A DNA stretch of 31,237 nucleotides from an actinobacterium SCGC AAA015-D07 (lineage in GTDB: Bacteria; Actinomycetota; Acidimicrobiia; Actinomarinales; Actinomarinaceae): positions 1 to 31,237 of the forward strand of contig ARQR01000008.1 of NCBI GenBank assembly GCA_000384495.1, written 5' to 3'. Within the stretch, counting starts at the first letter, position 1. Every line of letters starts with the position of its first letter. The position numbers were made by a program, and so were the translations under genes. Positions 1-8,952 of the stretch are shown piece by piece. The notes under the pieces were generated by a model that worked only from the letters and a program-made list of their open reading frames with translations, ran no database searches and had not been told where the DNA came from.

Positions 1-95
1 TCAACTACCTCTGAGGTCGGTGGTGTAGTCCAGGTTAAAGAACTAAAATCATTTCCCGTTTCAGACACTTTGTATCTCCACGTTATTGCTTGTCC
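1..95. repeat. 95-bp terminal inverted copy of 1894-1988 (probable assembly overlap)
   Basis: Positions 1-95 are a perfect reverse complement of 1894-1988 (position p pairs with 1989-p); identity stops at 96, where the window has A and the partner predicts C. The copy happens to stay open in the frame of the large surface-protein gene, but it is the antisense of one of that gene's own repeat modules. Its exact length equals that of the right-end repeat, which suggests a k=95 graph vertex joined through an inverted chimera, not a biological repeat. Confidence 0.9.
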
Positions 96-3000
96 ATATA
101 GTTTAGTAACAGTAGAAGCACAATATTCAAGTTGTGGATCGAATTTCAGAGCAGCAACATTTAAGGTAACTAATACCGGCGCTTCTACATCTGCTGCTAA
201 ATTCCGTGTTCAATACAAAATTGTGACGCCTACTACAACAGTCACAGATTGGACAAACTCCTCGTTAATAGATACTGTAGTTGCTCCAGGAGCTTCTCAG
301 GTAACTTCAAATAACCTACAAATAACTGAAGGACAGAAAATTATCTGGAGATACGAATCTGTCAATACTTCAGCAGACTTCTTAAACAACTGGACAGAAG
401 ATGATACAAGTGGTTATGTGAACTGCGTAATAAATGTAACAGTCACTAATTCAATGGGTTCTTGTGATAACGGATCTCAAACAGCGACACTTAATGTAAC
501 AAATGATGAAACAAACAATACTGTTTATTTCAAGGTTCATTATAAAACTGGCAATACTTGGATTTTAAAAGATGCAAATTTAGAAGTTGGTCCCAATTTT
601 ACAAATAGAACATTAACCGTTGATGTTCCACATGATAAAAATATTCAATGGAAATATCAGGTTAGTAATACACCTAATGATTATGCAAATGCGGAAGTCG
701 TAGAACTCACGGCTTCAGCTACTGTTAATTGTGTAATTCTTGATGCAACCGGCTCTTCAGCATTTGGGTCTTGTATAAGTGGTCAGAGAAGATCGACTTT
801 TACTATGGAAAACTCTTCTTCTGCCAATGATGGAGCATACTTTTATGTTCAATATGATTTGAGTGGCGATAATCAGTCTTGGCAATATCACACGAGCGGC
901 CAAGCAAATTTCGTAGGTGTGGGAGCGCAAAATGTGATACATCAAAGTGTCCCTAATGGAGAAACAATTCAATGGAGATACTATCCAATGACCTCAGCTA
1001 CAGCTCCTGCTGAAAGTGACTGGATAAATGAAAGTACTCAAACTCCCGAGGATTGCTCATTAGATACACTCATCAGTCATACATTAGATACATGTATAAG
1101 CAATAGCCAAGTATCTAATTTTGTCCTAACCAACAACACGGCTGGAGACGTACATTATCATGTCCAGTATTTTATTGAAGGTACCTCAGCATATGCTGAC
1201 GCAGATAATGACTTAATACTTACCGCGGGTTCACCACAGGCATTTACACAGACTGTAGCTTCTGGAAAATATATCCAATGGCGTTATAAAGCAGCAACTT
1301 CTAATGCTGGTTTGGCATCTGCAACCTGGGTTGATCACACTGCTAACTCCGCATTTAAAAAGACTATAAATTGTGAAAATATTGATCCGAGTGTTGTTCA
1401 ATCATTTGGTCTTTGTTATAACGACACAAAGAATGTGAAATTCATAATAAAAAATAGCTCAAGCGCTACAACTTCAGCATATTTCAAAGTTCAGTACAAA
1501 ATTGGTTCTGGAGAATGGATTGATAAATCAGACCAAGAAATAAGTATAGGTGGTCAATTTTCACATTCACAAAATGTTCCAGCTGGACAGACGATACAGT
1601 GGCAATATAAAGTTGCAAAAACTCAAGCAGATCTTCCAACTGGATGGACAACTTTAAATGCGACAACTATTACCTGTAATGGTGAAGATATCTCTATTAC
1701 AATGGATCCCGCCTGTGATGCTAATGGCTACAAGACCTCTAAGTTAAATATATTCAACTCAAGTTCGGGAAATTTATACTATCAAGCCCAATACACATTT
1801 GAAGGAGCTAATAGCAACAACTGGACTACTGCAGCTGAACAAGTTGTGGTATCGACTGGAAATTCAACATTTGTACCAATATCTGTCCAACAGGGACAAG
1901 CAATAACGTGGAGATACAAAGTGTCTGAAACGGGAAATGATTTTAGTTCTTTAACCTGGACTACACCACCGACCTCAGAGGTAGTTGATTGTACAGGGGT
2001 AAGCATTTCCACTCCATATACTTCATTAAGTCAATGTGTCTCTGGTGCAAAGACTTCAACTTTCAACTATTCCACATTGTCATCAAGCGCAAACGCAGCT
2101 TATTTCCACATACAATACAGAATTGATGGTGGAGCATGGATTAATAAAGTAACATCCTCTGATGGAACGCTTGCTGCAGGGCAAGCTAATTCGGTTACAC
2201 ATTCTGTAACCTCTGGTACTACTATCGAATGGCAATATAAAGCTGCTTACAACACCACAGCTTTAACAAATGCAAGCTTTATTTCTCTTGCAGGAGGAGC
2301 TGAAGAGGTTGATTGTGGAGTTCAACTAACAGTAAGTCATGGATTCAGCACATGTACAAATCAAACAGCAACTTCTACACTTTTATTAAAAAACACAGGC
2401 GCAACCCCAATGCTTGTTACGGTACAATCTAAACTCAATACTGGAGATTGGGCTACCGAAGTATCGACATTTGAAATAACTGCTGGTAATGAATTATCGT
2501 TAACCAAAACAATAGTAAGTGGTCAAACGATTAGCTGGAAGTATAAATATGCTGGAACGGTCGTAAAACTTACTTCTGCATCAGAGACAACAATGGACAC
2601 GATACCGGCACTAGATTGTGAAACACCTATTCTTAATCAAGTCGCTGTTAGTAATGTTCTTAAAGAGTGTGTTGCAGGAAAGAGAATATCAGAATTAACA
2701 TTTACAAATAACTCAAATGAGACAGTGTATGTTGAGGCTTTGTATGACACAGGGTCCGGTTACCTTCTTAAAGGAACTTATTCTGTTACTAATGGAACCC
2801 CAAGGGTCCTGGAGTCTCCTAGCGTTCTTAGTGGTTCAAGTGTTAAATGGAAATATCGATTGGGACTTTCCAGTACATTAACTGGAAACTATACAGAGCT
2901 CGAAGCTTTATCGGTTAGTTGTATACAGACATCTGACGTTACAGCTGCTTTTGACGCTTGTACAAATCTAACCAGAGATTCCAGAGTCACGATTAAAAAT

Positions 3001-5073
3001 ACTGGATCATTAACCCAGTATTATCAACTCTTTTACTCAATAAGTGGTGGTTCCTATCAATTCCTAACAGAGGTAACTGTTGGAGTAAATCAGGAAAATA
3101 CTTCTAATTATCAAAATTTAACCTCTGGACAATATATCAACTGGAAATGGAAGTCATCTATTGTTCAGGGTGATTTTGCTAATTCACAGGATAACTTCCT
3201 CACAAGATCTACATCAGTGAACTGTATCGATGATAGCTTGTCAGCATCAGCAACTCCCACGTGTACCCCAAATGGAGCTACCTCAACGAAGACATCTGGA
3301 TTTACAATTACAAGTAGTTCAACCGACTCAAAACAAGTTGAAGTTCAGTATTCAACAGATAGTGCTACCTATCTTGCAATGGGTACACATACTGTTAGTA
3401 GTTTGCAGCCGTATGTAGATAGTAGACCATTTACTACAAACTACTACACCTATAGATATCGAATTTCTGGCACAACAAATTGGTCTCAACCAGTAGTTAG
3501 CGTAGCTCCATCAGACTGTTCTATAGTTACAAATGTTATCAGTGCATACAATACAAATGAATGTGTAGACGGTAGCTCATTTGCTAAATTGTCTATTGTT
3601 AACCCCGGTCAAGTTGCAACTGTAATTTATGACATCAATATCAATAACGCAGGTTGGCAGAGTGTTGGATCACCCTCTGTAAATGGTACGTATACTTCAA
3701 CTGGAGGTGTAAAAATACCAGCAAATACTCCTTTCCAATGGAGATACAAACTAGCTACTGATACAGATTATAAATTCGTTTCCGGCACAGGAAACGACTG
3801 TTCTCAAGCTAACGCAATTACTGCTGTTACAGAAATTATATGTCCTGCTGACAACAGTAGTAAATCAGCAAAATTGCGAATTATAAATGTTGGGCCTCAA
3901 TCAGTTAGTGCGATGTACAACTACTCCATCAATAATGGACCTTCACAGTCTGGTCCAGCACCGGTTTCAATAAATCCAACTTCATCGAATTACTCTATTG
4001 AAGTTCCTTTAAATGATGGAGATCAAATTGTATTTGAATATAAGCTCACAAGTGACGCAAGCTATCAACAAACACCGGCTAAATCAACTTCAGAATGTGG
4101 AGATGGTTTAATCTCAAATCCTCAATTGATTCAAACTATATCTGAATGTACTGAAAGTGCTGCCGTATCTACAGTAGAAATGAGAAACCTATCTGATCAA
4201 GTTAAGACATTTTATCTTGAATATAAATTAAATAATGGACCATGGACCAACTATGACACAGTCACAGTTAACGCATCAAGTCCTGTAACGAGAAAATTAA
4301 CGGTATCTGATAATACAACTATACAGTGGAGAGCAGTTGAAAACAGCTTTACACAGTTCGACCTCAACTCTCCTTATCAGTTATCTCAAGCAGAAACAGT
4401 TATATGTCAGTCAGTCACTACTACAACATTGCCACCTGTGAAATATATATTTGAGCCAATTGTTTCAACTAATAGGGTTTGTGACTTCGAAGACGGTGGA
4501 GCAGAGTTTGGTATTACAGTAGATAATTCAAGATCTAATGTTTCTGCAAAAGTTCTAAAGAAAATCTGGATCAACACAACACTCATTGCTCAAGAGACTG
4601 TCAACGTCCCAGCAGGCCAAACAATAGATTTCTCCTCTATAGAAGTAGGAGAAAATAAATTCTTTACGGTTGCTCTTGAAGTAACAAACAATGAAAATGG
4701 TAAAGTTCAAAAAATGATTAAGAACAAGGATGCTGATTGTATCGAGGATGAGCGTCCAATTAATGAGGAACAGAATCCTATCGATGAAGTAGAAGTTACT
4801 GAAAATACAGATAATGTTATGGAAGGTGATGGCGACGATCAAGAAATGGAAGATAATGGTGAATCACTCTTGTTCCTTCCAGGTGATGATTTCGTTGAAT
4901 TTGTTTATATAGAGGATGCATCGAATCCATTTACACCACAATTTACTGATGATTCCCCTCCAACACCAGGAATACCATTTACAGGTCGAAATGTTGGTGG
5001 TTTAATCATTTCATTTGGATTGATGCTAATCGGATTTGGTGCTTTTATACTAAGAAGAGCATTCAAATTTTAG
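1..5073 (+). CDS. Giant tandem-repeat surface protein with C-terminal sorting signal (5' partial)
   Basis: A cell-wall-anchored or secreted surface protein, probably adhesive or structural. The frame is open from base 1, but bases 1-95 are an inverted copy of internal sequence, so genuine coding starts near 97 and the true N-terminus and signal peptide are missing. The TTG at 70 lies in the copied segment and should not be taken as the start. About 14 diverged modules of roughly 100 residues each carry an N-terminal Cys, a VQY-type strand, a W-[RKQ]-Y-K motif (near nt 340, 643, 970, 1276, 1597, 1906, 2227, 2533, 2845, 3139, 3451, 3736, 4033, 4324) and a closing Cys, consistent with a beta-sandwich (inferred). 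The end has a Thr linker, an acidic stretch, then IPFTG, a hydrophobic segment and RRAFKF: a sortase signal. Its TAG directly abuts the sortase ATG, so the two are probably co-translated. The ligand is unknown. Confidence 0.85.
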   Translation, partial: STTSEVGGVVQVKELKSFPVSDTLYLHVIACPYSLVTVEAQYSSCGSNFRAATFKVTNTGASTSAAKFRVQYKIVTPTTTVTDWTNSSLIDTVVAPGASQVTSNNLQITEGQKIIWRYESVNTSADFLNNWTEDDTSGYVNCVINVTVTNSMGSCDNGSQTATLNVTNDETNNTVYFKVHYKTGNTWILKDANLEVGPNFTNRTLTVDVPHDKNIQWKYQVSNTPNDYANAEVVELTASATVNCVILDATGSSAFGSCISGQRRSTFTMENSSSANDGAYFYVQYDLSGDNQSWQYHTSGQANFVGVGAQNVIHQSVPNGETIQWRYYPMTSATAPAESDWINESTQTPEDCSLDTLISHTLDTCISNSQVSNFVLTNNTAGDVHYHVQYFIEGTSAYADADNDLILTAGSPQAFTQTVASGKYIQWRYKAATSNAGLASATWVDHTANSAFKKTINCENIDPSVVQSFGLCYNDTKNVKFIIKNSSSATTSAYFKVQYKIGSGEWIDKSDQEISIGGQFSHSQNVPAGQTIQWQYKVAKTQADLPTGWTTLNATTITCNGEDISITMDPACDANGYKTSKLNIFNSSSGNLYYQAQYTFEGANSNNWTTAAEQVVVSTGNSTFVPISVQQGQAITWRYKVSETGNDFSSLTWTTPPTSEVVDCTGVSISTPYTSLSQCVSGAKTSTFNYSTLSSSANAAYFHIQYRIDGGAWINKVTSSDGTLAAGQANSVTHSVTSGTTIEWQYKAAYNTTALTNASFISLAGGAEEVDCGVQLTVSHGFSTCTNQTATSTLLLKNTGATPMLVTVQSKLNTGDWATEVSTFEITAGNELSLTKTIVSGQTISWKYKYAGTVVKLTSASETTMDTIPALDCETPILNQVAVSNVLKECVAGKRISELTFTNNSNETVYVEALYDTGSGYLLKGTYSVTNGTPRVLESPSVLSGSSVKWKYRLGLSSTLTGNYTELEALSVSCIQTSDVTAAFDACTNLTRDSRVTIKNTGSLTQYYQLFYSISGGSYQFLTEVTVGVNQENTSNYQNLTSGQYINWKWKSSIVQGDFANSQDNFLTRSTSVNCIDDSLSASATPTCTPNGATSTKTSGFTITSSSTDSKQVEVQYSTDSATYLAMGTHTVSSLQPYVDSRPFTTNYYTYRYRISGTTNWSQPVVSVAPSDCSIVTNVISAYNTNECVDGSSFAKLSIVNPGQVATVIYDININNAGWQSVGSPSVNGTYTSTGGVKIPANTPFQWRYKLATDTDYKFVSGTGNDCSQANAITAVTEIICPADNSSKSAKLRIINVGPQSVSAMYNYSINNGPSQSGPAPVSINPTSSNYSIEVPLNDGDQIVFEYKLTSDASYQQTPAKSTSECGDGLISNPQLIQTISECTESAAVSTVEMRNLSDQVKTFYLEYKLNNGPWTNYDTVTVNASSPVTRKLTVSDNTTIQWRAVENSFTQFDLNSPYQLSQAETVICQSVTTTTLPPVKYIFEPIVSTNRVCDFEDGGAEFGITVDNSRSNVSAKVLKKIWINTTLIAQETVNVPAGQTIDFSSIEVGENKFFTVALEVTNNENGKVQKMIKNKDADCIEDERPINEEQNPIDEVEVTENTDNVMEGDGDDQEMEDNGESLLFLPGDDFVEFVYIEDASNPFTPQFTDDSPPTPGIPFTGRNVGGLIISFGLMLIGFGAFILRRAFKF
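1894..1988. repeat. Internal partner of the left-end 95-bp inverted copy
   Basis: This stretch encodes part of a W-R-Y-K module of the surface protein on the + strand. Its exact reverse complement forms bases 1-95. Here it sits in an uninterrupted reading frame with matching modules on both sides, so this is the authentic copy. Confidence 0.9.
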
Positions 5074-6732
5074 ATGGCATATTTTTTTATATATTTACTG
5101 ATAATAATTATCAACATCTTTGCCGTTCTATTTGTATTAAAAATTAGAAGAAAAAGATCTACTGATCCAGATGTCATTTCCGATGCAACACTTGTAGAAG
5201 AAAATTCAATCGAACCAATAAAAGCTAAAAGGCCTTTTTCACGTTTCAAGAAAGAAGATCCTAGTACAAATATTTTTGTTGAATATGAAGAAATTGAAGA
5301 AGATGTAGCTGAGCAAATATTTGATGGTAAGTTTCTAGATATTGCTGTAAGTGAAAAAATTGTAACAAAAAAAGGTAATTGGTTTTTATATGGCGAAGAA
5401 AAACTCGGGTATGGAAAAGAAAAAGCTAAATTATATTTGCTTGAGAATCCTGATATAGCAACTGAAATAAGGGATCAATTAAGTAGTGCTAAAGAAATAG
5501 AAAATTTAATAAACCAAAAAGACTTAAAAAAAATAAATTCTGATGATTCCGGAAATGAAATAAATCTATCTTCAGACGAAATTGAAAATCAAAAATCGCT
5601 GAGCTATGTTAATCAGAATTTTGAGGTAGAACTTTCAGAAATTTATGTAAAATCAAATATTTTAAAAAAAGTACTTGAGAATGCCATCGGCACAGAAGTT
5701 ATTATCAGTGTAGATGTAGGTGAGAGATTTAATCCTTTAATTGCTGAGCCTGATAATTTCACAGACGACATCATGACAATGCTTAAGGAGATAGACTATC
5801 TAACATCTGCAGTCAAAAATATATCTAAAAATGCAAAGTACTTAGGAGTTGATGTAACAAAAGAAATGTTATTAGAAAAGCTGGCATTGATGACATCTGA
5901 TCGATTTTCTATTGTCTTTTCAAAAAAACCAGTTGAGAAACATAGAAACATTCCAAGACTTAAATTTGATTTACCAGTAAAAAAAAACCAAAGACAAAGA
6001 GAAGTAACAGAAACTAGAAAATCATTTGAAAGTACAAATACAAGATCACTTCTTCCACTTGGTGTAGGTCTATTAATAGTAGGTTTTTTAATTTTGATTT
6101 ATTCAATTAATCAAACATTTTTTTCTACTTCAGTAATAAATGATGAGCAATATCTATTAGAAAATAAATTTAATGTTAGTGATGTTAAACTTTCTGAATT
6201 AAGAAATAAAAATATCGCGACTGATAGTTCATTAAATAATTTATCACAAACAGATGAATTTCAAGAGTCTGTTATCTCAATTGCAACAAAAACTCTTACT
6301 AATCAAGCAGCAAAGGCAAAGTTTCTTCCAGATGTTGTTGGAAGGTTAACAATCCTATCTGCAAATATAAATCATTATGTGGTCTTTGGCGCAACGAGTA
6401 ACAAATTAGAGTATGGACCCGGTTATATACTTGGAACTGCACTTCCAGGTTCGGGAGGAAACTTCGCAATTGCTGGACATAGAACTACATACGGTGCACC
6501 ATTCGGCAATCTTGATAAAGTTCAGATTGGTGAAACAATAATATTTCAAACAAATACAAATCAATATGAATACCGAGTTATAGATGTGAAGATCGTATCT
6601 CCCGAAGATAATTATGTACTGGAGGACTATGGTGACGACAGAATAACGTTAACCACATGTCATCCAAAATTCTCTGCAAGAGAAAGGCTTGTAGTTATTG
6701 GACAACTGGAAAGGGTAGAGGTATTTGGATAA
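5074..6732 (+). CDS. Class E-like sortase with two TM segments and a RecA C-terminal-domain-like cytoplasmic region
   Basis: A transpeptidase that would cleave a sorting signal and join the protein to the cell envelope. The catalytic domain is at about residues 410-548. Visible active-site residues are His469 in AGHR, Cys529 in LTTCH, and Arg536/Arg538 in SARERL. TM1 is at about 3-23, followed by RRKR, and TM2 at about 326-345; this predicts a cytoplasmic loop of about 300 residues and an outside sortase domain. Residues about 80-137 of the loop closely resemble the RecA C-terminal domain (GNWFLYGEEKLGYGKEKAK, then ENPDIATEI), unexpected in a sortase and much longer than usual sortase N-termini. 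Residues 190-285 are unrecognised. The ATG follows the surface-protein stop with no gap, and the stop overlaps the next ATG by one base. The upstream IPFTG protein is the obvious substrate. Sortase call firm; class and loop role less so. Confidence 0.9.
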   Translation: MAYFFIYLLIIIINIFAVLFVLKIRRKRSTDPDVISDATLVEENSIEPIKAKRPFSRFKKEDPSTNIFVEYEEIEEDVAEQIFDGKFLDIAVSEKIVTKKGNWFLYGEEKLGYGKEKAKLYLLENPDIATEIRDQLSSAKEIENLINQKDLKKINSDDSGNEINLSSDEIENQKSLSYVNQNFEVELSEIYVKSNILKKVLENAIGTEVIISVDVGERFNPLIAEPDNFTDDIMTMLKEIDYLTSAVKNISKNAKYLGVDVTKEMLLEKLALMTSDRFSIVFSKKPVEKHRNIPRLKFDLPVKKNQRQREVTETRKSFESTNTRSLLPLGVGLLIVGFLILIYSINQTFFSTSVINDEQYLLENKFNVSDVKLSELRNKNIATDSSLNNLSQTDEFQESVISIATKTLTNQAAKAKFLPDVVGRLTILSANINHYVVFGATSNKLEYGPGYILGTALPGSGGNFAIAGHRTTYGAPFGNLDKVQIGETIIFQTNTNQYEYRVIDVKIVSPEDNYVLEDYGDDRITLTTCHPKFSARERLVVIGQLERVEVFG

Positions 6733-8312
6733 TGAAAAAAATAATTATTTCATTAATCTTTTTCTTTTCTTTTTTTAACGGTGCATACCCCAATGGATAT
6801 TTAGATACAAATTTACATGATACTGATGAAGCAACTATTGAAATAGAATCTGCAAGATTAGATGAAAATAATTTACAAATTTCATGGTTAGTTAGTGGTC
6901 TTGAAAATATTGATGAATTGATTATTTCAGTTCGTGAACTTACATCTGATGGATTGCAAGGAGAACCATTGGAGATTATCGATTACTCTGAAAAAGGACA
7001 AAAAATTATTCAATGGGATGGGACTACAGATCTTTCGATAATTTTAAAAATTTTATCAACTAACTACACACAATATAGTGGACCGGACTGCGCTTCGGTT
7101 TATTGTTATAGAGACATTACTACTGAAATTACTTCAGATGAGTATATAATTAATAAAATTCCTGATCTTCCTGTAATAACTACTACTGTTCCCGTCGATG
7201 ATTTTATTATTGAAGAAACAGTAATTGATACATCAACAAATATAACATTCACAAATGAGCTCATTACAACTATTCCACTCTTCAGTGATATTGATTTTTC
7301 AGATCAGGCTAAAAATGCTTTTGCATTTCTTATAACTTCTGGAATTATATTTCTATTTTATGGAGTTTTACTCGCCCAGGAGTGGTTCAACAGAATAATT
7401 GCATACTATAGAGTCAGGTGGTCAAATCGTGAAAGCAAATTAAGAAATAAAACAAGGCTTGAGACAGCAATGGAGATAACGCTTGTGGCTCTAATTACAT
7501 CTCTATTATATGCATTTGTTGAGGAGGGCTTCACATTTCAAGTACGGCAAGAGAATTTAGCAATTTTTGTGGGTGTCTTATTTGGACTTATTATTGTTAC
7601 CTTCTTTTATGAGGGTATAGAATCTTTAATTGAATATTTTCTGTATGACCAAATTGTGAAATTTGATTGGAATCCACAAGCCATGTTTTTTGCAGTACTT
7701 TCAACAATACTCTTCATTGTTATTGATCTTCCTTTTGGATTTATTCTTGGTTTTATAGCAGCAATACATGTAGTTTCGAAGAGACCAAAAGCGGAATTGT
7801 CACCTAAATTTTATTCAATGATAAGTCTTTCAATTGTTGGATATTTTTTCTTCTACGCAACATCATTTGAATCGGTTAGCTCTTCAGGTGTTTTAATGGC
7901 AATTTGTAAACTTACTTACTTAATGTGTTTAGAGGGAGTTATATTTAAAGCAGTTCCTTGGGGAGGGAATGAGTTATTTGATGCAATTGGTGACTCAGAT
8001 GGAATTTATCAGGCAATGCCAATTGTTAGCTTTTTGATAAGTATCTGGCTATTTATAAGAATCCTTGTCTTACCACCTGACAGTGAGTTTAATGAATTAC
8101 AACAAACTTTATTACAGAGTGGAGAGCTAGCTTACAGATTCATGCTTGTTTTATTAATTTATATATTCATAATTTTACTACTAGGTAACTTCATGAAAAA
8201 ATATGCTGAATTGAATAGACCCGCTGACTATGAAGAAAGTTTAAAGATTGATGATGAAGAAATTATAGATTTAGTTGATGATGATCTTAGCGAATCAGTA
8301 AATGAGTGGTAA
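6732..8312 (+). CDS. Secreted-domain polytopic membrane protein, unknown function
   Basis: The start is set at the ATG overlapping the sortase stop (TAATG), giving 526 residues; a longer reading from 6657 would run inside the sortase and lacks the signal peptide. Residues 1-21 look like a signal peptide (MKK plus a hydrophobic run). Residues 25-185 form an extracytoplasmic domain with QWDG and a Cys120/Cys125 pair, ending in a TTTVP stretch. Around six to seven membrane segments follow (about 196-216, 245-263, 276-294, 317-348, 360-378, 427-447, 468-486), with acidic membrane positions (VEEGF, YEGIES) and an acidic C-terminus. The EGVIFKAVPWGGNELF segment near 401-416 loosely recalls the FGLLP-motif membrane proteins of actinobacteria; this is a weak resemblance. 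The position between sortase and secreted HExxH protein suggests a role in surface-protein export or processing. No function is assigned. Confidence 0.8.
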   Translation: MKKIIISLIFFFSFFNGAYPNGYLDTNLHDTDEATIEIESARLDENNLQISWLVSGLENIDELIISVRELTSDGLQGEPLEIIDYSEKGQKIIQWDGTTDLSIILKILSTNYTQYSGPDCASVYCYRDITTEITSDEYIINKIPDLPVITTTVPVDDFIIEETVIDTSTNITFTNELITTIPLFSDIDFSDQAKNAFAFLITSGIIFLFYGVLLAQEWFNRIIAYYRVRWSNRESKLRNKTRLETAMEITLVALITSLLYAFVEEGFTFQVRQENLAIFVGVLFGLIIVTFFYEGIESLIEYFLYDQIVKFDWNPQAMFFAVLSTILFIVIDLPFGFILGFIAAIHVVSKRPKAELSPKFYSMISLSIVGYFFFYATSFESVSSSGVLMAICKLTYLMCLEGVIFKAVPWGGNELFDAIGDSDGIYQAMPIVSFLISIWLFIRILVLPPDSEFNELQQTLLQSGELAYRFMLVLLIYIFIILLLGNFMKKYAELNRPADYEESLKIDDEEIIDLVDDDLSESVNEW

Positions 8313-8952
8313 ATTAACCGTTACTATTGTCATTTTAATTGTTTTATTCATTAGTTTGTCTTATATATATGTAATAAATAATCCAATTGAGATAAGTATT
8401 CAAGCTAATATTGGAAGTACTGAAACATCTACTACCTCATCATCAACTACTACTACCTCATCTTCGACGACAACTACCATTCAACTTACTACTACCTCAT
8501 CTTCGACGACAACTACTATACCAACTACAACTACCTCCTCAACTACTACATCAACTACAACGACAATTCCACGGACGACAACAACAATTGAAGTACTAGA
8601 AAAAGAAGACTCAGTTGCCTTCAATTCGGATAATTCGGAAAACATAAAAATTTACGAGGGTGAATTTATATCATTTGATGGATTTGAGGGTGAAAATCAA
8701 TTCAACCTTGATACATTAGTTGCCAATTTACCTTTAGAGTTGAGAAAATCTGTAGAAAATAATGTGATATTTGTAAACGGTTGTCACTCTTACGCGGCTA
8801 CAATTTTGGGCAGATGTCCTTTTGGTGTATGGGATTCAGCTGGAACATTTGCTGATGGCTCAACAAATTCAAATTGGAAATTATCAGTCTGGGTTTCAAA
8901 CAAAGCATTTGCTAACAATAGAGCTTACAATAGCCACATGGCCTGTCGCTGA
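8302..8952 (+). CDS. N-terminal part of a secreted Thr-rich HExxH protein (3' end misjoined)
   Basis: Start overlaps the preceding gene by 11 bp. Residues 5-27 are a signal anchor; residues about 40-95 are almost pure Thr/Ser with Ile-Pro, a flexible, possibly glycosylated stalk typical of actinobacterial surface proteins. A small domain with Cys161 and Cys172 follows. As assembled, the protein ends after residue 210 in a short out-of-place tail (SHMACR). The last 95 bp before that (8838-8932) recur inverted at the window's right end. There the frame continues without a break into HETSH and a further 70 residues. The joined product, 8302-8932 plus reverse strand 31142-30907, is 288 residues with a natural stop. 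The tail from 8933 to 8952 is therefore probably spurious. Function: putative membrane-tethered zinc metallopeptidase in the sortase operon. Confidence 0.75.
   Translation: MSGKLTVTIVILIVLFISLSYIYVINNPIEISIQANIGSTETSTTSSSTTTTSSSTTTTIQLTTTSSSTTTTIPTTTTSSTTTSTTTTIPRTTTTIEVLEKEDSVAFNSDNSENIKIYEGEFISFDGFEGENQFNLDTLVANLPLELRKSVENNVIFVNGCHSYAATILGRCPFGVWDSAGTFADGSTNSNWKLSVWVSNKAFANNRAYNSHMACR
8448..8516 (+). repeat. Direct repeat (2 x 30 bp) in the Thr-rich stalk
   Basis: Positions 8448-8477 and 8487-8516 are identical 30-mers offset by 39 bp (13 codons), inside the Thr/Ser codon tract. This is a coding repeat that could change stalk length in frame by slippage. Confidence 0.85.
8838..8932. repeat. 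Internal partner of the right-end 95-bp inverted copy; branch point
   Basis: This segment is the exact reverse complement of 31143-31237 (p pairs with 40075-p). The two copies diverge at 8933 (G here, C in the other continuation). One continuation leads into korA coding repeats, the other into the HETSH end of the same secreted protein. Confidence 0.92.

What the first reader, a model, noticed from the sequence alone, without database searches (positions are those of the whole stretch)
5311..5484. RecA C-terminal-domain-like segment inside a sortase
Sortase residues about 80-137 (FLDIAV, IVTKKGNWFLYGEEKLGYG, KEKAK, ENPDIATEI) line up by eye with the RecA C-terminal lobe, where the pattern is DLAV-x-GIV-KSGAWYSY-GE-IGQG-ENAK-x-L-ENP-x-A-EI. 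Two TM segments (3-23, 326-345) would place it in the cytoplasm with the sortase domain outside. In RecA this lobe contacts double-stranded DNA. A membrane protein carrying a DNA-binding-type lobe inside and a surface transpeptidase outside is not a known architecture to me, and could link envelope anchoring to nucleoid or division.
Basis: partly seen in the sequence, partly recalled or inferred. Interest (0 to 1): 0.78.

Follow-up and report, generated by a model that had tools for sequence, protein, structure and literature searches.

The report
RecA DNA-binding lobe inside a sortase
In tiny ocean bacteria, the membrane enzyme that probably fixes a giant protein to the cell surface carries, on its inner side, the lobe that the DNA-repair protein RecA uses to hold double-stranded DNA, which suggests that surface anchoring may be physically linked to the chromosome.

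The parts
5074..6732 (+). sortase gene with RecA_C domain (552 aa): TM1, linker, RecA_C, linker, shared cytoplasmic domain, TM2, stalk, sortase
   Evidence: ORF; Pfam; relatives
5326..5484 (+). RecA C-terminal domain (residues 85-137)
5356..5418 (+). stretch holding K95, K99, K115, equivalents of E. coli RecA K282, K286, K302
   Evidence: alignment; role of the RecA lysines from PMC4666392 (passages)
5083..5139 (+). TM1 (residues 4-22), followed by KIRRKR
   Evidence: Kyte-Doolittle; charges
5614..5943 (+). cytoplasmic domain (residues ~181-290) shared with the fused-type sortases; no known family found
   Evidence: match from 171-190 on in the fused type; no significant family
6052..6108 (+). 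TM2 (residues 327-345)
6346..6708 (+). sortase domain (residues 425-545) with His469, Cys529, Arg538
   Evidence: PF04203 E=1.6e-29; conservation
1..5073 (+). C-terminal part of a giant surface protein (frame open at the window's left end), probable sortase substrate; the G057 counterpart has 3,745 aa
   Evidence: ORF; G057 and others
4972..5070 (+). sorting signal IPFTG + membrane segment + RRAFKF tail; stop codon 5071-5073 directly followed by the sortase ATG
6732..8312 (+). multi-pass membrane protein of the same cassette (no Pfam family at E 0.01)
   Evidence: start codon placed by eye
8302..8952 (+). Thr-rich protein of the cassette with an N-terminal membrane segment in its relatives, cut short in this window by the junction near 8935

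Best explanation
This is a membrane sortase of Candidatus Actinomarina that acquired a RecA C-terminal domain, probably once, together with an extra N-terminal membrane segment. The RecA lobe hangs in the cytoplasm and most likely still binds nucleic acid (dsDNA) through a lysine-rich face. It holds the sortase near the nucleoid side of the membrane, probably close to where the neighbouring giant surface protein is transcribed, translated and exported. The sortase outside then cleaves that protein's sorting signal and fixes it to the cell wall. SHOWN by computation: domain identity, predicted fold, topology signals, conservation, selection, adjacency to a protein with a sorting signal, alternation with a fused form at what looks like the same locus. 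INFERRED: dsDNA binding, the tethering role, the identity of the substrate. Confidence: RecA_C homology about 0.99; retained nucleic-acid binding about 0.55; tether for placement about 0.35.
Against: No binding experiment. The isolated RecA lobe is a weak dsDNA binder (recalled). A basic face can also bind anionic lipid or RNA. In the window's own lineage two face positions are not Lys (S93, T98), and in 2 of 32 rows the K302 equivalent is Leu. In SrtE1 the basic stretch of the cytoplasmic tail could be deleted without loss, so class E sortases do not generally need one. The lobe evolves faster than the sortase domain (0.05-0.18 against 0.02-0.08), and in 2 of 11 comparisons no slower than a linker. 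E. coli RecA already has Lys at all four sites, so their presence is retention or parallel gain, not proof of a new role. Foldseek gave no match at E 0.001 or better (best 1.4e-3). Rows are related, so counts are not independent events. A low-GC genome favours Lys. Nothing shows that the sortase stays near its own gene.
Confidence: 0.45

Rival explanations
1. The lobe binds anionic phospholipid at the inner membrane face and serves as a membrane-position anchor, not a DNA tether.
For: Basic face next to a membrane; RecA assemblies are reported to associate with anionic phospholipids of the inner membrane (passages of PMC6363387 citing Rajendram 2015).
Against: The protein is already held by two TM helices, so lipid binding adds little; the lysines cluster in the two stretches that hold the DNA-contact sites of RecA. 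The passages do not assign the lipid contact to the CTD.
Confidence: 0.15
2. The lobe was re-used as a protein-docking module, for example for the basic tail of the giant substrate, the export machinery or another cassette protein; DNA binding is lost or incidental.
For: The class E SrtE1 cytoplasmic tail is speculated by its authors to contact other proteins; invariant non-basic residues also exist, some unlike E. coli RecA (Y113 for Q300, L123 for K310).
Against: Many of the invariant residues are shared with E. coli RecA (W103, Y106, E109, L122, N125, P126, E131) and expected from the fold; the lysines at 100, 110 and 117, where the 8 compared RecAs mostly have A/S/G, Q and N, suggest an anionic partner, whereas the substrate tail is itself basic.
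Confidence: 0.25
3. The lobe catches incoming phage DNA or senses DNA stress next to a giant surface protein that may act as a phage receptor.
For: Alternative surface cassettes scattered among close relatives, a pattern often linked to phage or grazer pressure (recalled).
Against: No phage link found: a viral-contig scan with the window's lobe gave 0 relatives, though it reaches close relatives only. Pfam named no defence gene among the neighbours tested; PADLOC was not run.
Confidence: 0.05
4. Neutral passenger: a RecA fragment captured in a tolerant linker with no function.
For: Flanking linkers are poorly conserved (0.57 and 0.47 mean pairwise identity); fused-type sortases lack it.
Against: Lobe conservation 0.74 between those linkers; dN/dS 0.05-0.18; kept in every full-length relative listed.
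Confidence: 0.05

Closest known systems
RecA C-terminal domain (PF21096; PDB 1aa3, 2zr9)
   Same: Sequence (31-42% in the Foldseek rows shown), order of elements, fold, K282/K286/K302 equivalents, W290, Y293, G301
   Different: No RecA ATPase core in the chain; sits between two TM helices of a sortase; more basic than the 8 class RecAs compared; forms its own clade outside the class RecA rows
Class E sortases (SrtE1 of Streptomyces coelicolor; NCBIfam NF033747)
   Same: Best-scoring sortase class (114.3 bits); cytoplasmic N-terminal extension before the last TM (PMC5148588); fused-type relatives carry LAxTG, the class E motif
   Different: Below the class E cut-off of 160 bits; extra TM1 and RecA_C; the abutting substrate ends IPFTG, LPVTG, AITG or GPTG rather than LAxTG
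Actinomarina fused surface protein-sortase (20 genomes, this work)
   Same: Homologous cytoplasmic domain, TM2 and sortase; shared flanking genes where the loci reach them
   Different: Surface protein, sorting signal and sortase are one chain (2,245-2,890 residues in the four loci read whole); no RecA_C

Membership tests
RecA C-terminal domain (PF21096) | Profile score above curated cut-off | tested here: met
   64.1 bits against 27, E=1.3e-17
RecA C-terminal domain (PF21096) | RecA CTD fold | tested here: met
RecA C-terminal domain (PF21096) | dsDNA-contact lysines K286 and K302 | tested here: met
   K99 31 of 31 rows, K115 30 of 32 rows
RecA C-terminal domain (PF21096) | Binds dsDNA | not testable with these tools
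   needs a binding assay
RecA recombinase | ATPase core and full-length RecA model | tested here: not met
   TIGR02012 matches only positions 267-319 of 321 with 39.4 bits against 325.3
Sortase (PF04203) | Profile score above cut-off | tested here: met
   102.6 bits against 26.6
Sortase (PF04203) | Catalytic His, Cys, Arg | tested here: met
   H469 invariant, C529 and R538 at 90% or more in 32 rows; their catalytic role is recalled for the family
Sortase (PF04203) | Sorting-signal substrate | tested here: inconclusive
   abutting protein ends IPFTG-TM-RRAFKF; cleavage not shown
Class E sortase (NF033747) | Model score above cut-off 160 | tested here: not met
   114.3 bits, the best of the sortase classes

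The most novel reading that the evidence does not exclude
The RecA lobe tethers the sortase to the chromosome, so that it stays at the export site of the giant surface protein encoded just upstream (transertion-coupled anchoring in cis). The alternative cassette solves the same problem by fusing sortase and substrate covalently. Two interchangeable ways to keep a single sortase with a single giant substrate: a DNA tether or a peptide bond.
Probability: 0.18. Interest if true: 0.88.

Novelty: new variant of a known kind. Interest (0 to 1): 0.7.

Why it matters
Sortases are treated as outward-facing enzymes; what the cytoplasmic extension of class E sortases does is open (PMC5148588, section 5). 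A RecA-type DNA-holding lobe on one of them makes a link between envelope anchoring and the chromosome directly testable, in streamlined marine cells. It would also be a case of the RecA lobe used apart from recombination. The alternation with a fused surface protein-sortase gives a natural comparison for what the lobe is for.

Tried and rejected
Assembly error as cause of the fusion: rejected (238 of 240 listed relatives from many contigs). Recent copy of the organism's own recA: not supported; the 9 sortase lobes form one clade (100/100) apart from 32 RecA rows, though 62 columns resolve little. In that call my Walker A pattern hit 17 of the 32 RecA rows, and rows L059 and L060 were labelled 'class' by my script but are the Actinomarina genomes already present as L030 and L029. 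Phage source: viral-contig scan with the window's lobe gave 0 relatives; it reaches close relatives only. Other RecA_C fusions in the class: of 296 genomes, eight (all Actinomarina) have two matches and none has more; two genomes without a match were not listed. One of the eight, G005, has a cut sortase and a recA frame that runs into another gene inside the lobe. Function of the shared cytoplasmic domain: no significant Pfam or PDB sequence match; the fold list was filled by the RecA lobe, so this domain's fold was barely tested. The first full-length model was poor (mean pLDDT 45.6). Fused surface protein-sortase elsewhere in the class: in 139 genomes the non-Actinomarina matches listed lie in frames of at most 849 residues and none starts before residue 157 of the 398-residue query, i.e. 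they lack the shared domain (further matches not listed). One fused protein with LAYTG outside Actinomarina was seen, P0248. Literature: 10 searches; those on this point showed no description of the fusion; one search listed 15 of 78 papers. Passages of PMC11077077, PMC3834820 and PMC10107303 gave nothing used. Subscription papers are not held.

Full report
WHAT IS THERE. The ORF at 5074-6732 (+) encodes 552 residues. Pfam finds RecA_C at residues 85-137 (64.1 bits, cut-off 27, E=1.3e-17) and Sortase at 425-545 (102.6 bits, E=1.6e-29) and nothing else above a cut-off. NCBIfam ranks class E sortase first (114.3 bits, below its cut-off of 160) and matches RecA only over positions 267-319 of 321. 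Against solved structures the segment aligns without gaps to E. coli RecA; most single-copy RecA chains score E about 3e-10 to 6e-8. Hydrophobic segments lie at 4-22 and 327-345. Basic residues follow TM1 and precede TM2 (5 K/R in 20 residues each, 1 in the 20 after TM2), so the loop with the RecA lobe should be cytoplasmic and the sortase outside. H469, C529 and R538 are kept.

NOT AN ARTEFACT. A database search gave 792 relatives, of which the 120 listed all carry both domains. A search from a ~50% identical relative gave 790, of which 118 of the 120 listed carry both; the two without are N-terminally short (415 and 370 residues). Unlisted relatives were not seen. Named contigs include four isolates of uncultured Candidatus Actinomarina (AH-321-L10, AH-287-A16, AG-447-L16, AG-333-M17). 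Names of that AG series are given as single-cell genomes in PMC7771536 (AG-915-F11, AG-913-K07; passages), but three of these four titles also carry the word MAG. Three further hits bear titles of other groups (Flavobacteriales, Euryarchaeota, Gammaproteobacteria MAGs; 83, 80 and 49% identical), which I take as mis-binned contigs because they match over the full length.

DISTRIBUTION. In 42 genomes of the genus, RecA_C occurs twice in eight (G004, G005, G015, G022, G023, G042, G049, G057), once in RecA and once in the sortase. In G005 the sortase is cut by a contig end and the recA frame runs into another gene inside the lobe. In 296 genomes of the class, no genome outside these eight has more than one RecA_C match. 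The sortase family hits 27 of 42 genus genomes, exactly once each; two of the eight genomes at least 90% complete have none (G017, G046).

TWO CASSETTES. In type A (window and the eight genomes) a giant surface protein, 3,661-3,757 residues in the four loci where it is complete (L070-L073), ends in a short TG motif (IPFTG, LPVTG, AITG; GPTG in L074), a membrane segment and a basic tail. It is followed at once (gap -1 to +6 bases in the six loci read: window, L070-L074) by the RecA_C sortase. In type B (20 genomes) the sortase match starts only at residue 171-190 of the query and mostly lies in long open frames, some cut by contig ends, and these genomes show RecA_C at most once. In the four loci where the gene is complete (L068, L069, L076, L077) it is one chain of 2,245-2,890 residues with an N-terminal hydrophobic segment, surface part, sorting motif, membrane segment, basic stretch, about 145-160 further residues, TM and sortase. 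The motif is LAxTG in 17 of 20 and MADTG in 3 of 20. LAxTG is the class E motif (PMC5148588, passages). Flanks agree where the loci reach them: a threonine-synthase-like gene upstream in type A L073 and in type B L068, L069, L076, L077, and a 448-residue Rho-like gene downstream in type A L071, L072, L073 and in type B L075 (these two names are recalled from the sequences, not from a search). A TetR-type gene (Pfam on L071 only) is upstream in type A; a gene similar to it by eye is downstream in type B. The domain before TM2 is common to both types; RecA_C and TM1 are only in type A. In 139 genomes of the class, non-Actinomarina matches listed do not reach that domain.

HISTORY. The sortases of types A and B are two clades (28 rows: window, 7 type A with the cut G005 copy left out, 20 type B; 100/100; the program warns that long branches meet there). 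On an rpoB tree of 23 of these 28 genomes (dropped: G015, G044, G048 no match; G022, G045 fragments) the types are intermixed: five changes, at least four forced by well-supported branches, and 216-217 of 500 shuffles as low. G057 (type A, 98% identical to the window's sortase) has nearly the same rpoB as G001, G012 and G056 (type B). Exchange of whole cassettes between lineages is the simplest account; old polymorphism with losses is not excluded. The lobes of 9 sortases form one clade apart from 32 RecA rows of the class, so a single capture is likely, and not a recent one from Actinomarina's own recA; 62 columns cannot name the donor.

CONSTRAINT AND THE DNA FACE. Across 32 aligned type A proteins (the 31 complete lobes are 16 distinct sequences) mean pairwise column identity is 0.74 in RecA_C, 0.57 and 0.47 in the linkers on either side, 0.77 in the shared domain and 0.82 in the sortase. 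In nine pairs, dN/dS of the lobe is 0.05-0.18 in six, 0 in one and without value in two; within the six it is below a linker's value in 9 of 11 comparisons (above linker 1 in two pairs); linkers 0.08-0.50 (0 in one), sortase domain 0.02-0.08 (several dS values are saturated). In RecA, K280, K282, K286 and K302 are named as dsDNA contacts by docking and simulation and by older mutant work (PMC4666392, passages). Their equivalents are Lys in 23 of 31, 30 of 31, 31 of 31 and 30 of 32 rows. All ten basic-majority columns of the lobe fall in the two stretches 280-287 and 297-306. Eight RecAs of Actinomarina and its class (8 of the 32 rows) have D/E at 280 and no Lys at 282, and a net charge of -2 to -5, against 0 to +5 in 31 sortase lobes; E. 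coli RecA is +1. This fits retention, even strengthening, of a surface for an anionic polymer. It does not prove DNA binding.

HOW IT MOST LIKELY WORKS. The cytoplasmic lobe binds nucleic acid and keeps the sortase at the nucleoid-facing membrane, near where its giant partner is made and exported; outside, the sortase cuts the partner's TG motif and fixes it to the wall. The fused cassette would reach the same end by a peptide bond. Precedent for a functional cytoplasmic part: S. coelicolor SrtE1 needs its first ~80 residues in vivo, though its basic stretch is dispensable (PMC5148588, section 5 read). Rivals: lipid anchor (RecA bundles meet anionic phospholipid; PMC6363387 passages), protein docking, phage-DNA catching, passenger.

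NOVELTY. Ten full-text searches were run; those aimed at this point showed no paper on a sortase with a RecA lobe, and no paper in the library holds both 'Actinomarina' and 'sortase'. The Actinomarinales genome paper has no mention of giant, surface protein, LPXTG or RecA in its main text (PMC7771536, find). Both domains are known; their union and the A/B alternation are new to me: new variant of a known kind.

Noticed in passing
L039-L058; L068, L069, L076, L077 read in full: Alternative cassette in 20 of 42 Actinomarina genomes: surface protein, LAxTG/MADTG sorting signal, membrane segment, cytoplasmic domain and sortase in a single reading frame, i.e. a sortase fused in cis to its own probable substrate.
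   Followed up: partly
P0248 residues 2127-2370: A 2,370-residue Actinomycetota protein (source name 'sortase') with DUF11 repeats, LAYTG, membrane segment, RRRR, second membrane segment and sortase: a similar fusion outside Actinomarina.
   Followed up: partly
window 8930-8945: The window joins two places: 5000-8932 matches G057 contig C2 (98%), 8942-14384 matches G057 contig C7 (92%); in G004 both lie on one contig but about 11-21 kb apart and on opposite strands. Chimeric join or true rearrangement; the Thr-rich gene is cut here and the oxidoreductase frame starts across it. The sortase is not affected.
   Followed up: partly
L111 (G005 C16:1500-5500): The recA frame of G005 runs, inside the C-terminal lobe, into a frame that looks like an ABC transporter ATPase (563 residues in all): deletion or chimeric contig.
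   Followed up: partly
P0126: A type A protein whose N-terminal half resembles the G049/G023 group and whose C-terminal half resembles the G004 group by eye: recombination inside the gene, or a chimeric contig.
   Followed up: no
G017, G046: Two Actinomarina genomes at least 90% complete with no sortase match; a third kind of cassette may exist.
   Followed up: no
window 5614-5943: Cytoplasmic domain shared by both sortase types, seen in Actinomarina sortases only among the class matches listed, no known family found.
   Followed up: partly
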